A stretch of DNA of 64,000 bases. Source: Ruegeria sp. PrR005 (GTDB lineage Bacteria > Pseudomonadota > Alphaproteobacteria > Rhodobacterales > Rhodobacteraceae). The stretch is from the NCBI RefSeq assembly GCF_010500245.1, contig NZ_JAAGOX010000003.1:1-64000 (forward strand), in the 5' to 3' direction. The notes beneath the pieces are model-generated. The model searched no databases. It was given only the letters and a program-made list of their open reading frames with translations, and was not told where the DNA came from. Every line of letters starts with the position of its first letter. The stretch's first letter is position 1. Positions 53,908 to 58,856 of this stretch are shown in pieces. Both the position numbers and the translations under genes were made by a program.

Positions 53908-53988
53908 GCCCCCAATCTAACCGTCTGCGCGGCAAGGGAAAGCGGATTGCCGCTGGACAGCGCGCAACGCGCAGCCGAGCATGGCGGC

Positions 53989-54573
53989 ATGTTTCGACTG
54001 TTCTGCCTGAGCCTGATCGTCTTTTTTGTTGCCGCGTTTCATGACGCCCGGGCGGCGGAATGTCCCGCGGGCACCGCCCAATGCGGTGCATCAAACTGCT
54101 GCGGCCTGTCGCAAACCTGTATCTGGGACGGGTACTGCGTGCCTTTGGGCGGCACCTATTGCGGCGGCGGCCGGTCCTGCGGGCCGTTCGAGGACTGCGT
54201 GGCAGGCGGCACCAGATGCGCGCCCAAGGGCGCGGGCAAATGCCAGACCGGCCTGACCTGCGGGCCCGGCATGACCTGTTCGGTTTCCGGCGACTGCGTG
54301 CCGCTTCCGAAACCAGAGCTGACCCTTCCCCAAAACCCGCCCTGCAAGGACGGACGGGTCTGTCCGGCGGGGACCCAGTGCCTGCCCGGGGGAGGGTGCA
54401 GCCGCGTCGGCTGGTACCTGTGCGAAGAGACCGGATCACAATGCAGGCCGGGCTTCAAATGCTCGGCCGAACGGGGCTGCGTGCCGCAGCTGGCGGTCGA
54501 TTGCGGGCGCGGTGCATGGTGCAAGCCGGGCGAGACCTGCCTGCCCGAGGGCGGCTGCACCCCCTCCGACTGA
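53989..54573 (+). CDS. Secreted protein of six four-Cys modules
   Basis: A 194-residue protein with a signal peptide (1-23, cleavage near DARAAEC). The mature chain holds 26 Cys. They form six modules of C-x5-C-x5-C-x5-C with small spacing variants: Cys 32-50, 58-77, 85-103, 119-137, 145-164 and 172-190, each ending in a Gly-containing turn before the last Cys (GYC, GTRC, GDC, GGGC, ERGC, GGC). Cys25 and Cys37 are extra. The repeats recall eukaryotic disulfide-rich knots, but I know no family name. It is encoded divergently from UDG; ATG 53989 is used and the longer frame back over UDG is a shadow. Confidence 0.75.
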   Translation: MFRLFCLSLIVFFVAAFHDARAAECPAGTAQCGASNCCGLSQTCIWDGYCVPLGGTYCGGGRSCGPFEDCVAGGTRCAPKGAGKCQTGLTCGPGMTCSVSGDCVPLPKPELTLPQNPPCKDGRVCPAGTQCLPGGGCSRVGWYLCEETGSQCRPGFKCSAERGCVPQLAVDCGRGAWCKPGETCLPEGGCTPSD

Positions 54574-54644: not shown

Positions 54645-55580
54645 ATGTCATTTGCCCACCGACACCTGCTTGGCATCGAACAGCTGTCTCCCGCAGATAT
54701 CACCGCCATTCTGGATCTGGCCGAGACCTATGTCGACCTGAACCGGCAATCGGCCAAGCATTCCGACGTGCTGTCGGGGCTGACCCAGATCAACATGTTC
54801 TTTGAGAACTCCACCCGCACCCAGGCCAGTTTCGAACTGGCGGGCAAGCGGCTGGGCGCGGATGTGATGAACATGTCGATGCAGGCCAGTTCGATCAAGA
54901 AGGGCGAGACCCTGATCGACACCGCGATGACATTGAATGCGATGCATCCCGATCTTCTGGTGGTACGGCACCCGCATTCGGGCGCCGTGGACCTGCTGGC
55001 GCAGAAGGTGAATTGCGCGGTGCTGAACGCGGGCGACGGGCGGCACGAACACCCGACCCAGGCGCTCTTGGATGCGCTGACGATCCGCCGGGCCAAGGGG
55101 CGGCTGCACCGGCTGAACATCGCCATCTGCGGTGACATCGCGCATAGCCGCGTGGCGCGTTCAAACTTGATTTTGCTTGGAAAAATGGAAAACCGCATCC
55201 GTCTGATCGGGCCACCGACGCTGGTTCCCTCTCAGTTCGCAGAGTTTGGCGCCGAGGTCTATGACGACATGCGCGAGGGTCTGAAAGACGTCGACGTGGT
55301 GATGATGCTGCGGCTTCAGAAAGAGCGGATGGATGGCGGCTTCATCCCGTCCGAGCGCGAGTATTACCACCGCTACGGGCTGGACCGCGAGAAGCTGGGA
55401 CTGGCCAAGGCGGATGCGATTATTATGCATCCGGGGCCGATGAACCGGGGGGTCGAGATTGATGGGACCTTGGCGGATGACATCAACCGGTCGGTGATCC
55501 AGGAGCAGGTGGAAATGGGTGTCGCGGTGCGCATGGCGGCGATGGAGCTCTTGGCGCGCAACCTGCGCGGGGCGGCATGA
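54645..55580 (+). CDS. pyrB: Aspartate carbamoyltransferase
   Basis: Catalytic subunit that makes carbamoyl-aspartate in pyrimidine synthesis, 311 residues. Binding motifs: [19 protein letters not shown] (carbamoyl phosphate site), [47 protein letters not shown], then [10 protein letters not shown] and the late [13 protein letters not shown]. No regulatory pyrI is present, as usual for the group where PyrB pairs with a PyrC-like partner. Its stop overlaps the next gene by four bases (ATGA). Confidence 0.96.
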
Positions 55581-56101
55581 CCCGGCTGAGTGTCCCCCAC
55601 AACGAGAGCGGCCTGATCCGCCTTTACGCCCTGAACATGCGGCCCGAGGAGGCGCGGTTCCTGCGCGAGCCGGGGGCGGTGGCGCAACTCCTGGGACTCG
55701 ACGCGCTCGACATGGATCATGTCGAGGTCTTCCCGGTCTCGGACCTCGAAGAGCTTGGGCTTTATGGTTATCTTACAGAGGGTTGCGGGATATCCGAGGA
55801 TCAGCTCAACCGCGCGGAACTGGCCGCGCACAAGGGCTGGATGCTGCTGCTGCGCAGCCGCGCGTTCGGCGGGAACCCGGTCGAAATTACCTTGCCCGAA
55901 GCGCTGGAGCCGGTGGGAGAATATCGCGAAGAAGGCACCGACTGGAGCGGGACACCGATCGAGACGGCAAGCGCCCTGCCCCATTCCGCGCCGCGTCTGC
56001 CGCCGCGCGAGGCGCGGCGCAAGGCGCGCAATATCGGGTTTACCCTGTTCGCCGTTGTCATGTCGCTGATCATCGGGGGGCTGGCATGGCTGATCTTTTG
56101 A
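55577..56101 (+). CDS. Hypothetical protein with C-terminal membrane anchor
   Basis: A 174-residue protein without a recognised family. The soluble part ([39 protein letters not shown]) runs to about 150; the last 22 residues form one helix ([20 protein letters not shown]), so it is probably a tail-anchored inner-membrane protein. It overlaps pyrB by four bases and is the first of three genes between pyrB and pyrC. Confidence 0.7.
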
Positions 56102-56219: not shown

Positions 56220-56606
56220 ATGAGCGGCGCGACGTTCCGATTTCCCGCCGACCGAGGGGCCTATATCCGCAACCACACCTGGATGGCGGCGATTGCCATG
56301 GGCGGCGCCATGGCGGTGCTCTGGGCGATGGTCAATCCCTATGTCTGGACCGGTGCTCCGGCGGGCCTCGCCGCGATTGCGCTGCGCGGCTGGTACCTGG
56401 CGTCGGAGGAGCTGGCGGTGGTCTGGGAAATCTCGGACGGTACGCTCAGCGGCCCGGGCCACCGGGTGCCGCTTAACCAGATCGAGATGGTGCGGACCAT
56501 GGGCAGCTATGTGCAGGTGATCACCAAGGGCGGTGACAAACACCTGATCAGATACCAGGCGGACCCGGCCGCCACCAAGGCCGCCATCGAAAGGGCGATA
56601 AGATGA
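56220..56606 (+). CDS. Hypothetical membrane protein, PH-like (128 aa)
   Basis: A 128-residue protein with two hydrophobic segments (MAAIAMGGAMAVLWAMV, PAGLAAIALRGWYLASEEL) followed by a soluble beta-rich part, VWEISDGTLSGPGHRVPLNQ then IEMVRTMGSYVQVITKGGDK, which recalls bacterial PH-like (YdbS/YdbT-type) domains. It has normal high GC. Its stop overlaps the DUF4268 start (ATGA). Function unknown. Confidence 0.65.
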   Translation: MSGATFRFPADRGAYIRNHTWMAAIAMGGAMAVLWAMVNPYVWTGAPAGLAAIALRGWYLASEELAVVWEISDGTLSGPGHRVPLNQIEMVRTMGSYVQVITKGGDKHLIRYQADPAATKAAIERAIR

Positions 56607-57583
56607 CCGAACTCGGTAAGCTCACAAAGGTCGATCTTCGAAAGATTTGGCAGACAGAGGCTAGGGACTTTACTCCGTGGTTAGCTCAGGAAGAAAACCT
56701 ACAGCAGCTTGGAGAGGTAATTGGCTTTGAACTTGAATTAGAGGCCGTCGAGCAAAATGTAGGCCCGTTTCGCGCAGACATATTGTGTAAGAACACTCTG
56801 ACCGACGAATGGGTTTTGATCGAAAACCAGTTGGAAAGGACTGACCATACCCACTTGGGGCAACTCATTACTTATGCTGCTGGCTTGGATGCCGTGACTA
56901 TCGTCTGGATTGCCTCAAACATTGCAGACGAACACCGCGCGGCATTGGATTGGCTGAACGAAGTTACCAATCAAAACATTCGTTTCTTTGGCATCGAGGT
57001 TGAGTTGTTAAAAATTGGAGAGAGTCCCGCCGCTCCAAGATTCAATCCGGTTAGTCTTCCGAATGATTGGTCCCGAAGCACAAGCGCTGCGAAGAGGGAA
57101 ATGAGACATATACCTCTAACAGACACAAAAAGGATGCAATTGGACTACTGGGATGCTGCCGAGGCCCTGTTGACAGGGCGGCATGCATTCCTGAAGCCAC
57201 TGAAAGCTCCAGCACAGTCTTGGATTGCTCACTCCATAGGAAAATCTGGCTTTCTAGTCAGCATGGTGATGAATAGCAAAGCTCGCTGGATACGTGCTGA
57301 AATCTATCTAGGTGGAAAAGAGGCTAAAGTTCACTTCGACAAGCTCTTTGAGAAAAGAAGAAGGATCGAAAATACTTTTGGAAGCGAACTGGAATGGCAG
57401 CGGCTAGATGGAAAGCAAGACTGTCGAATTTGTATCTCTAGAACCTCGGATCCAAATGACAGATCCGACTGGCCAGACCAACATCGGTGGTTGATCGAGT
57501 CACTTATTCGTCTTCACGACACATTTCGCCCCATCATAGCAGAGTTAAGCCCCTTGTTGCCCGGGACTCGTGACAATGAATAA
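56603..57583 (+). CDS. DUF4268 protein with nuclease-like N-terminal half
   Basis: A 326-residue protein. The N-terminal half reads like a PD-(D/E)xK nuclease fold: Asp59 in FRADILCK and the ENQ of WVLIENQLERTDHTHLGQLI (Glu74, Gln76). The C-terminal half matches DUF4268 (WIRAEIYLGGKEAKVHFDKL, SDWPDQHRWLIES). Hand counts of two 60-base lines give 45% G+C against about 75% in one line of pyrC, and codons are AT-rich, so it looks acquired. It overlaps its upstream neighbour as ATGA and the pyrC start by 8 bases. DUF4268 proteins often lie near restriction or defence genes; no partner is here. Confidence 0.78.
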   Translation: MTELGKLTKVDLRKIWQTEARDFTPWLAQEENLQQLGEVIGFELELEAVEQNVGPFRADILCKNTLTDEWVLIENQLERTDHTHLGQLITYAAGLDAVTIVWIASNIADEHRAALDWLNEVTNQNIRFFGIEVELLKIGESPAAPRFNPVSLPNDWSRSTSAAKREMRHIPLTDTKRMQLDYWDAAEALLTGRHAFLKPLKAPAQSWIAHSIGKSGFLVSMVMNSKARWIRAEIYLGGKEAKVHFDKLFEKRRRIENTFGSELEWQRLDGKQDCRICISRTSDPNDRSDWPDQHRWLIESLIRLHDTFRPIIAELSPLLPGTRDNE

Positions 57584-58856
57584 CATCCTTTTCACCAATG
57601 CCCGGCTGATCGACCCCGAGGCGGGCACCGACGAGCGCGGCGCGCTGCTGGTCGAGGGCGGGCGGATCGTGGCGCAGGGCCATGAGATCGGCGTGCCCGA
57701 ACATGTCGAGGTGGTCGATTGCGGTGGCAAGTGCCTGGCCCCCGGTATCGTCGATATCGGCGTCAAGGTGGGCGAACCGGGCGAGCGCCACAAAGAGAGC
57801 TATAAGTCCGCGGGACAGGCGGCGGCGGCGGGCGGTGTCACCACCATCGTCACCCGGCCCGACACCAACCCGGCCATCGACACGCCCGAGGCGCTGGAAT
57901 TCGTCACCCGCCGGGCGCAGGCCGACACGCCGGTCAACGTGCTGCCGATGGCGGCGTTGACCAAGGGGCGGCAGGGCCGTGAGATGACAGAGATCGGGTT
58001 CCTGCTGGATGCAGGCGCGGTGGCGTTTACCGATTGCGACCATGTGGTCGCCAACACCAAGGTGTTTTCCCGCGCCCTGACCTATGCCCGGTCGTTGGGC
58101 GCGCTGGTCATCGCGCATCCGCAGGAGCCGGGGCTGAGCGAGGGGGCGGCGGCCACCAGCGGCAAGTTCGCAGCGCTCTATGGCCTGCCCGCCGTGTCGC
58201 CCATGGCCGAGCGGATGGGTCTGGACCGCGATATCGCGTTGCTGGAAATGACCGGGGCGAAGTATCACGCCGACCAGATCACCACCGCGCGTGCGCTGCC
58301 CGCGCTGGAACGCGCCAAGCGCAATGGGCTGGACATCACCGCCGGCACCTCGATCCACCATCTGACGCTGAACGAGCTGGATGTTTCGGGTTATCGCACC
58401 TTCTTCAAGGTCAAGCCGCCTTTGCGCAGCGAGGATGACCGGCAGGCGGTGATCGAGGCGGTGCGCACGGGCTTGATCGACACGATCAGTTCCATGCACA
58501 CGCCACAGGACGAGGAAAGCAAGCGGCTGCCTTTTGAGGAGGCCGCAAGCGGCGCGGTGGCGCTGGAAACGCTTTTGCCTGCGGCGCTGAGGCTTTATCA
58601 TGCCGGGCAGCTTGACCTGCCTACCCTGTTCCGGGCCATGGCGCTGAACCCGGCGCGGCGGCTGGGGCTGGAGGCCGGGCGGCTGAGTGCGGGGGCGCCT
58701 GCCGATCTGGTGCTGTTCGACCCGGACGTGCCCTTTGTTCTGGACCGGTTCACGCTGCGGTCGAAATCGCAGAACACCCCGTTTGACGGCCAGCGGATGC
58801 AAGGTAGGGTGCTGGCGACCTATGTGGCCGGACAGGCCGTTTACCGGAGAGACTGA
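57576..58856 (+). CDS. pyrC: Dihydroorotase (PyrC)
   Basis: Zinc amidohydrolase that closes the ring to dihydroorotate, 426 residues. It belongs to the class-I/AllB-like branch: LFTNARLIDPEAG, GGKCLAPGIVDIGVKVGEPG and TTIVTRPDTNPAIDTPEALE. The metal block usually reading DxHxH is DIGVK here, so the catalytic His pair is absent; together with PyrB in the same operon this fits the inactive-dihydroorotase type (PyrC/PyrX) that holds PyrB, with an active enzyme elsewhere. The start ATG 57576 lies within the DUF4268 gene; GTG 57570 is the alternative. Confidence 0.85.
   Translation: MNNILFTNARLIDPEAGTDERGALLVEGGRIVAQGHEIGVPEHVEVVDCGGKCLAPGIVDIGVKVGEPGERHKESYKSAGQAAAAGGVTTIVTRPDTNPAIDTPEALEFVTRRAQADTPVNVLPMAALTKGRQGREMTEIGFLLDAGAVAFTDCDHVVANTKVFSRALTYARSLGALVIAHPQEPGLSEGAAATSGKFAALYGLPAVSPMAERMGLDRDIALLEMTGAKYHADQITTARALPALERAKRNGLDITAGTSIHHLTLNELDVSGYRTFFKVKPPLRSEDDRQAVIEAVRTGLIDTISSMHTPQDEESKRLPFEEAASGAVALETLLPAALRLYHAGQLDLPTLFRAMALNPARRLGLEAGRLSAGAPADLVLFDPDVPFVLDRFTLRSKSQNTPFDGQRMQGRVLATYVAGQAVYRRD

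What the first reader, a model, noticed from the sequence alone, without database searches (positions are those of the whole stretch)
56603..57583. AT-rich DUF4268/nuclease-like gene seated inside the pyr operon
Hand counts give 45% G+C in two lines of this gene against 75% in one line of pyrC. The gene overlaps its upstream neighbour as ATGA and the pyrC start by 8 bases, so it was inserted with coupling kept on both sides. The N-terminal half resembles a PD-(D/E)xK nuclease with an ENQ motif. An acquired gene tied to pyrimidine synthesis could be a phage-defence or nucleotide-sensing element.
Basis: partly seen in the sequence, partly recalled or inferred. Interest (0 to 1): 0.65.

Follow-up and report, generated by a model that had tools for sequence, protein, structure and literature searches.

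The report
Phage-defence gene lodged in pyrimidine operon
A probable anti-phage nuclease gene has slipped, almost to the base, between two genes of the pyrimidine-synthesis operon, and related bacteria carry different versions of it, or nothing, at the same spot.

Summary
The 326-aa gene at 56603-57583 has 47.9% G+C (GC3 49%) against 61.5-67.2% in its neighbours and overlaps both (ATGA; 8 nt). Four of four sampled congeners lack it and share one intact orf128|pyrC junction; homology resumes within a few bases of the ORF ends, so the insert is the ORF itself. The protein is PADLOC's PDC-S11 (E 4e-123), a phage-defence candidate. Its N-terminal domain models as a NucS/EndoMS-type PD-(D/E)xK nuclease (Z 11.5) whose ExK is E-N-Q; [quoted passage not shown]

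New: the place is a recurrent slot. I found PDC-S11 in the pyrB-pyrC interval of 23 genomes, 22 times directly before pyrC. These alleles are nearly one clade. In Paracoccus the slot is empty, PDC-bearing or otherwise filled, scattered over the pyrC tree; strains with 93-97% identical PyrC carry PDC proteins 40-94% identical.

Best reading: a single-gene anti-phage nuclease kept as a swappable guest of a biosynthetic operon, borrowing its transcription and translation. Nuclease activity, defence and any response to pyrimidine levels are untested; nothing supports nucleotide sensing.

The parts
54645..55580 (+). pyrB (aspartate carbamoyltransferase), first gene of the pyr string
   Evidence: Pfam OTCace_N 1.5e-43 and OTCace 1.2e-21
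55577..56101 (+). orf174, small accessory protein of the pyrB-pyrC interval
   Evidence: ORF; belongs to a cluster of 80 interval ORFs in relatives; no Pfam family at E<=0.001
56220..56606 (+). orf128, small accessory protein directly upstream of the guest gene
   Evidence: ORF; belongs to a cluster of 102 interval ORFs in relatives; directly precedes pyrC with an ATGA overlap in 4 of 4 congeners
56603..57583 (+). guest gene: PDC-S11 / DUF4268 protein, 326 aa, low G+C
   Evidence: PADLOC PDC-S11 4.1e-123; Pfam DUF4268; G+C 0.479
56603..57067 (+). N-terminal NucS/EndoMS-like PD-(D/E)xK domain (about residues 1-155)
   Evidence: model m621a8ffbff29 against 2vld_A Z 11.5, rmsd 1.9, 103 residues
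56822..56830 (+). E74-N75-Q76, the ENQ motif in the place of ExK
   Evidence: E, N and Q each in 71 of 71 rows of A2; read
57110..57541 (+). C-terminal DUF4268 domain (about residues 170-313), YbjN/type III secretion chaperone-like in the model, fast-varying
   Evidence: Pfam DUF4268 residues 178-311; fold; mean pairwise identity 0.348 against 0.681 for the N domain
56603..56606 (+). upstream stop-start overlap ATGA (orf128 stop, guest start)
   Evidence: sequence
57576..57583 (+). downstream overlap ATGAATAA (guest stop, pyrC start)
   Evidence: sequence
57576..58856 (+). pyrC (dihydroorotase-type amidohydrolase)
   Evidence: Pfam Amidohydro_1 4.2e-12; matched in 380 of 394 family genomes

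Best explanation
The gene is a single-gene anti-phage effector of the PDC-S11 family. A NucS-like PD-(D/E)xK nuclease domain is joined to a fast-varying DUF4268 domain, which I take to be the sensor or target-binding part. It lives as a guest directly before pyrC: transcribed with the pyr genes and coupled to its neighbours by stop-start overlaps, so that it needs no promoter, integrase or partner gene. In its host family the pyrB-pyrC interval works as an allelic slot: empty, PDC-bearing and otherwise filled versions, and divergent PDC alleles, replace one another, most likely by homologous recombination through the conserved pyr flanks. Gene transfer agents, which move pieces of about 4.5 kb in this order, are a plausible vehicle. 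Shown: family, fold at model level, precise insertion, recurrence in one slot, scattered occupancy, purifying selection. Inferred: co-transcription, defence, cleavage, sensor role of DUF4268, recombination route.
For: PDC-S11 match over the full length. Insert equals the ORF in 4 of 4 congener comparisons. 23 slot genomes, 22 directly before pyrC. 13 slot genes need 2 location changes on a 96-row tree (shuffled mean 12.4, 0 of 500 as low). Paracoccus: 19 empty, 4 PDC, 6 other, 1 unread of 30, needing 10 changes on the pyrC tree. Eight of nine strain pairs with PyrC over 90% identical (7 strains) have PDC only 40-75% identical. PDC dN/dS 0.06 and 0.09 with dS above that of pyrC in two usable pairs. 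NucS-like fold with E19, D59, E74, Y91 in 71 of 71. Relatives between hsdS and hsdR. PDC-S11 in 10 P. aeruginosa strains, 90% resistant (PMC10855318, passage).
Against: No test of defence or cutting was found. The ExK lysine is Q in 71 of 71, so activity is not certain. Starred branches alone force only 4 of the 10 changes. Slot occupancy is rare in the less biased sample: 2 of 111 readable listed family genomes. No recombination tract was seen, and between genera PDC alleles are far apart (about 55-70% in DNA), so no recent transfer between genera was caught. The other slot cargo has no PADLOC match in the four proteins tried.
Confidence: 0.6

Rival explanations
1. The pyr slot is chosen for regulation: phage takeover drains UTP, the pyr genes are derepressed, and the nuclease is induced during infection. 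The operon itself is the nucleotide sensor.
For: One lineage of the gene is almost confined to the pyr slot, always coupled to or next to pyrC or orf128.
Against: No regulatory evidence was sought or found; relatives work, if they do, in hsd operons or alone. Simple hitch-hiking explains the same facts.
Confidence: 0.1
2. The gene was in the pyr operon of the family's ancestor and has been lost many times; no horizontal movement is needed.
For: Slot genes are nearly one clade; holding all 13 together is not rejected (p-AU 0.73).
Against: Loss would have to restore the exact RTGA junction again and again. Gene and PyrC identities part company, and PDC dS exceeds pyrC dS. G+C is still far below the host's in the window and in most slot genes.
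Confidence: 0.12
3. It is a DNA-repair nuclease like NucS/EndoMS (mismatch cutting), useful to the cell and not a defence gene.
For: Best fold matches are NucS/EndoMS.
Against: Patchy presence (39 of 394 family genomes with any match at E<=1e-10), hypervariable C domain, neighbours in restriction-modification operons, lysine of the active site replaced.
Confidence: 0.1
4. The nuclease site is dead; the protein is a regulator or decoy that binds DNA or a phage protein.
For: Q76 in 71 of 71 rows and in 23 of 23 slot rows.
Against: E19, D59, E74 and Y91 are kept in 71 of 71, which a dead site would not need; 5 of 23 slot alleles have a lysine at position 87 instead of Q, which could stand in. From memory, BglII is active with an ExQ site.
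Confidence: 0.08

Closest known systems
PDC-S11 (PADLOC-DB v2 single-gene phage-defence candidate; Pfam DUF4268, PF14088)
   Same: Full-length match, same two-part make-up; a relative from an hsd operon hits the same models
   Different: Sits in a core biosynthetic operon slot kept by one clade, not in a restriction-modification operon
NucS/EndoMS (archaeal and actinobacterial mismatch or flap endonuclease)
   Same: Catalytic-domain fold, and E127, D160, E174, Q187, Y191 equivalents by spacing
   Different: K176 is Q; the other domain is DUF4268; patchy and hypervariable
GmrSD-type type IV restriction enzymes with an added DUF4268
   Same: DUF4268 occurs as an extra domain (PMC4619093, passage)
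   Different: No DUF262 or DUF1524 domain found by Pfam at E<=0.001
Defence hotspots with interchangeable cargo between core genes
   Same: Different alleles and cargo at one fixed site
   Different: The site is inside an operon, the cargo is one ORF without mobility genes, and stop-start overlaps are kept (comparison with hotspots is from memory)

Membership tests
PDC-S11 (PADLOC candidate family) | Match to the family's profile models over the full length | tested here: met
   PDLC04911 4.1e-123, residues 1-313 of 326; PDLC04912 9.9e-118
PDC-S11 (PADLOC candidate family) | Anti-phage activity | not testable with these tools
   No test of it in the passages read; correlation only (PMC10855318)
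Pfam DUF4268 (PF14088) | Score above the gathering cut-off | tested here: met
   97.2 bits against 27
PD-(D/E)xK nuclease superfamily | Characteristic core fold | tested here: met
   2vld_A Z 11.5, 5gke_A Z 11.3, also 2p14, MspJI and FokI rows near Z 8; model only
PD-(D/E)xK nuclease superfamily | D...(D/E)xK residues | tested here: not met
   D59 and E74 kept, but K is Q76 in 71 of 71 rows; ExQ variants are known from memory (BglII)
NucS/EndoMS | Sequence relationship to the family | tested here: not met
   No NucS hit by single sequence or profile in solved structures up to E 10; resemblance is of fold only, 16% identity
GmrSD type IV restriction | DUF262 and DUF1524 domains | tested here: not met
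   Only DUF4268 found by Pfam at E<=0.001
[quoted passage not shown]
   Top 18 rows by Z (8.2 to 6.7) are all of this group and cover the domain, but Z is at the margin the tool gives for chance, and Foldseek E is 1.6e-3

The most novel reading that the evidence does not exclude
PDC-S11 is an ORF-sized mobile unit: a gene bounded only by RTGA stop-start overlaps that moves between translationally coupled junctions (hsdS|hsdR, pyrB|pyrC, orf128|pyrC) without any mobility gene, and its pyr-slot clade uses pyrimidine depletion during infection as the signal that raises its expression.
Probability: 0.1. Interest if true: 0.85.

Novelty: new variant of a known kind. Interest (0 to 1): 0.55.

Why it matters
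If right, a core biosynthetic operon doubles as an exchange site for a defence gene. Such genes are missed by searches that look only at defence islands, prophages and integrases. The slot offers natural empty, occupied and allele-swapped strains that differ at one gene, a ready-made test of what PDC-S11 recognises. It also makes an old question, how genes enter operons without breaking them, directly testable.

Tried and rejected
Vertical inheritance with loss only: set aside, because loss must repeatedly restore the exact overlap and PDC and PyrC identities part company. General defence hotspot with many defence families: not supported. Besides orf174-like, orf128-like and PDC-S11 ORFs the surveyed intervals gave only 15 singletons of at least 100 aa, 8 of them antisense, and orf174, orf128 and two of the six other Paracoccus inserts have no PADLOC match at E<=1, while a PDC-S11 relative in the same call does. 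The six other Paracoccus inserts resemble interval ORFs of other genomes (E 1e-11 to 5e-40). A foreign flank dragged in with the insert: not seen in the window against L003. Solved relatives by sequence: chance-level hits only. NCBIfam: no match for the gene. Viral fold library: a 110-aa DUF4268 phage protein at 40% identity is the most useful hit; nothing about function. Phages: 4 of 50,697 records match, one at full length in an Archaeoglobus provirus. Plasmids: 354 of 72,556 records, 58 covering at least 80%. Papers: 2 hold DUF4268 and 2 hold PDC-S11. Searches on restriction-modification with pyrB/pyrC (2 unrelated papers by listing), operon insertion (5, listing only) and anti-phage genes in this setting (none) gave nothing on this slot by their listings.

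Weak points. The trees are 'quick' trees with many weak forks; on the Paracoccus tree starred branches alone force only 4 changes of the empty state and 1 of PDC. The dN/dS figures for L247/L249 and L251/L253 are not used, because the pyrC frames of L247 and L251 are broken or carry unread bases. L233, L247 and L251 were left out of the 190-pair comparison, their PyrC being cut. The family survey used 115 of the pyrC places listed (of 380 genomes with a match), taken from the top by similarity, plus 5 chosen carriers and 4 congeners; 4 of these 124 loci gave no pyrC hit. The 96-row tree left out 5 family loci that are the same contigs as loci of the search for related loci, and 9 that were partial or distant. 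The Paracoccus and Roseovarius surveys were chosen because carriers had been seen there, so their frequencies are not family rates. Of the 39 family genomes with a match, neighbours were read only for those with a locus.

Full report
Observation. The ORF at 56603-57583 (+) encodes 326 aa. Its G+C is 47.9% and GC3 49.4%; pyrB, orf174, orf128, pyrC and plsY have 61.5-67.2% and GC3 0.80-0.85. Its start overlaps the stop of orf128 as ATGA and its stop overlaps the pyrC start by 8 bases.

It is an insertion. In the four congeners held (G001-G004), orf128 and pyrC meet at one junction, GGGCGATGACATGAGYAAC, with the orf128 stop overlapping the pyrC start. None has a homologue at E<=1e-3; two chance-level hits lie at E 0.4 and 0.7. 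Window and congeners align up to 56606 and from 57571 on. In the last 60 bases before the guest 54-56 match, and in the first 60 of pyrC 54-57 match; differences next to the guest are confined to three bases before ATGA and one or two after the pyrC ATGA. So the inserted DNA is the ORF and almost nothing else: no integrase, no second gene.

What the protein is. PADLOC's PDC-S11 models match over nearly the full length (4.1e-123), Pfam finds DUF4268 in residues 178-311, PHROGs an unnamed family. A model from 71 sequences (mean pLDDT 89.8, pTM 0.56, so the domain arrangement is unsure) has two domains. The first aligns best with the core of NucS/EndoMS: 2vld_A Z 11.5, rmsd 1.9 over 103 residues; 5gke_A Z 11.3. 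A review passage lists D160, E174, K176, K44, E127, Q187 and Y191 for Pyrococcus NucS (PMC7343888, passage). By fold range and spacing I match six of these with D59, E74, Q76, E19, Q87 and Y91; the pairing is inferred, not read from a residue alignment. E19, D59, E74, Q76, H82, H84 and Y91 are unchanged in 71 of 71 rows and Q87 in 70 of 71; among 23 slot alleles Q87 is K in 5 (L230, L015, L017, L245, L023). The lysine of ExK is thus glutamine throughout; from memory, BglII shows that an ExQ site can be active.

The second domain modelled alone (pLDDT 94.7, pTM 0.88) resembles class I type III secretion chaperones and YbjN (Z 8.2 to 7.8 for the best rows; Foldseek E 1.6e-3). This is near the margin the tool gives for chance, though the leading rows agree with each other. 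The group includes DR1245, a partner of the SSB-like protein DdrB (PMC3575483, start of abstract in the listing), so a protein-binding role is a reasonable guess. The C domain averages 35% pairwise identity against 68% for the N domain and is the lower in all 2485 pairs.

The slot. Of 394 family genomes, 39 (own included) match at E<=1e-10, 19 of them at E<=1e-50. Of these 19, 8 are in the pyrB-pyrC interval or directly before pyrC: 7 directly before pyrC, and one (L023, G350) between pyrB and the orf128 homologue. For G198 the contig ends before pyrB. A scan of named genomes kept the 80 best of 561 relatives; 7 of the 80 have pyr neighbours, among them Roseovarius marisflavi, three Paracoccus and three MAGs. 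In the genus around Paracoccus sp. WLY502, 9 of 125 genomes carry the gene, 6 of the 9 in the slot. In the genus around R. marisflavi, 12 of 84 carry it, 8 of the 12 in the slot; for one (L251) only pyrC was within reach. Without double counting this makes 23 slot genomes. The guest's stop overlaps the next start by 4 nt in 14 of 23; the rest lie between -11 and +1 nt. Elsewhere the gene sits between HsdS and HsdR (L168, L172; Pfam), before HsdR-like or methyltransferase-like ORFs recognised by eye, or with no close long neighbour.

In the survey of 124 intervals (115 listed family genomes, 5 chosen carriers, 4 congeners; 4 without a pyrC hit), interval ORFs of at least 100 aa form three clusters: orf128-like (102), orf174-like (80) and PDC-S11 (6; a seventh, L061, lacks pyrB in the stretch), with 15 singletons, 8 of them antisense. 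Among the 111 readable listed genomes only 2 (G111, G122) hold PDC-S11 there, so occupancy is rare. Of 113 loci without PDC-S11, 85 have an RTGA stop-start overlap at pyrC: pyrC is natively coupled to whatever precedes it, and the guest keeps that coupling.

Turnover. Thirteen slot genes on a tree of 96 need 2 changes of location (shuffled mean 12.4; 0 of 500 as low); a tree holding them together is not rejected and scores higher than the free one (p-AU 0.73). One lineage has thus specialised on this place. Within it, gene and host do not travel together. In the 30 Paracoccus pyrC loci nearest to that of L161 the junction is empty in 19, holds PDC-S11 in 4, another small ORF in 6, and was not read in 1. 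On their pyrC tree these states need 10 changes, no fewer than shuffled labels (mean 9.4; 200 of 200 as low), though well-supported branches alone force only 4. Of nine pairs (7 strains) with PyrC over 90% identical, eight have PDC 40-75% identical and one 94%; over 190 pairs the correlation is 0.40. In the two usable close pairs, dS of PDC exceeds dS of pyrC (0.594 against 0.304; 2.438, saturated, against 0.280) while PDC dN/dS is 0.06 and 0.09. So the protein is under constraint and its alleles are older than the strains that carry them, as expected of alleles exchanged in place. Between genera PDC genes share about 55-70% of DNA letters, so no recent transfer between genera was caught.

Route. 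RcGTA-like gene transfer agents are conserved in most Rhodobacterales genomes; RcGTA moves pieces of about 4.5 kb that integrate by allelic replacement and need homologous-recombination proteins (PMC9690577, abstract and passages). pyrB plus guest plus pyrC is about 3.2 kb in Paracoccus. The window's genome has two matches to TIGR02217, which I recall as a gene transfer agent family; that recall is untested. The route is inference.

How it most likely works. Step 1, shown: the ORF lies in the pyr gene string with overlaps on both sides. Step 2, inferred: it is made from the operon's transcript. Step 3, inferred: the DUF4268 part recognises something of the phage, probably a protein or protein-DNA complex, and its variation reflects an arms race. 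Step 4, inferred: the NucS-like part then cuts phage DNA. Step 5, inferred: selection for rare alleles keeps the slot turning over through flank-mediated recombination. The first entry needs a precise illegitimate event, for which the short RTGA repeat may have served; this is a guess.

Published evidence. PDC-S11 was found in 10 P. aeruginosa strains, 90% of them in the resistant group (PMC10855318, passage); it is named in a S. suis survey (PMC12813430, passages); DUF4268 is an extra domain in GmrSD homologues (PMC4619093, passage). Searches for DUF4268 and PDC-S11 found four papers in the library held, which lacks most subscription journals and preprints; three of them were opened, for passages.

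Verdict. The protein belongs to a known candidate family. The new part is its clade-specific, allele-swapping residence in a core biosynthetic operon.

Noticed in passing
window 55577-56101 and 56220-56606; L264, L266, L275, L277, L278, L284: Small accessory ORFs of the pyrB-pyrC interval (orf174, orf128 and relatives, many with membrane-like stretches by eye) also come and go between relatives, with no Pfam family at E<=0.001 for orf174 and orf128 and no PADLOC match for the four tried.
   Followed up: partly
L097:229-1428: A matrixin/astacin-like metalloprotease ORF (Peptidase_M10 6e-10) lies in the pyrB-pyrC interval of one relative, G336.
   Followed up: no
L247 (2475-3748) and L251 (2472-3909): pyrC is split over two reading frames or holds unread bases in two slot carriers; may be assembly errors or real breaks.
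   Followed up: no
BK065154.1:88-1017: A full-length relative of the gene (33.5% identity) lies in an Archaeoglobus provirus.
   Followed up: no
L025-L032 (loci): A separate branch of DUF4268 proteins sits directly before type III methyltransferase-like ORFs with 1- to 4-nt overlaps in most; recognised by eye only.
   Followed up: no
window 53969-54573: A cysteine-rich repetitive protein end is encoded just before pyrB.
   Followed up: no
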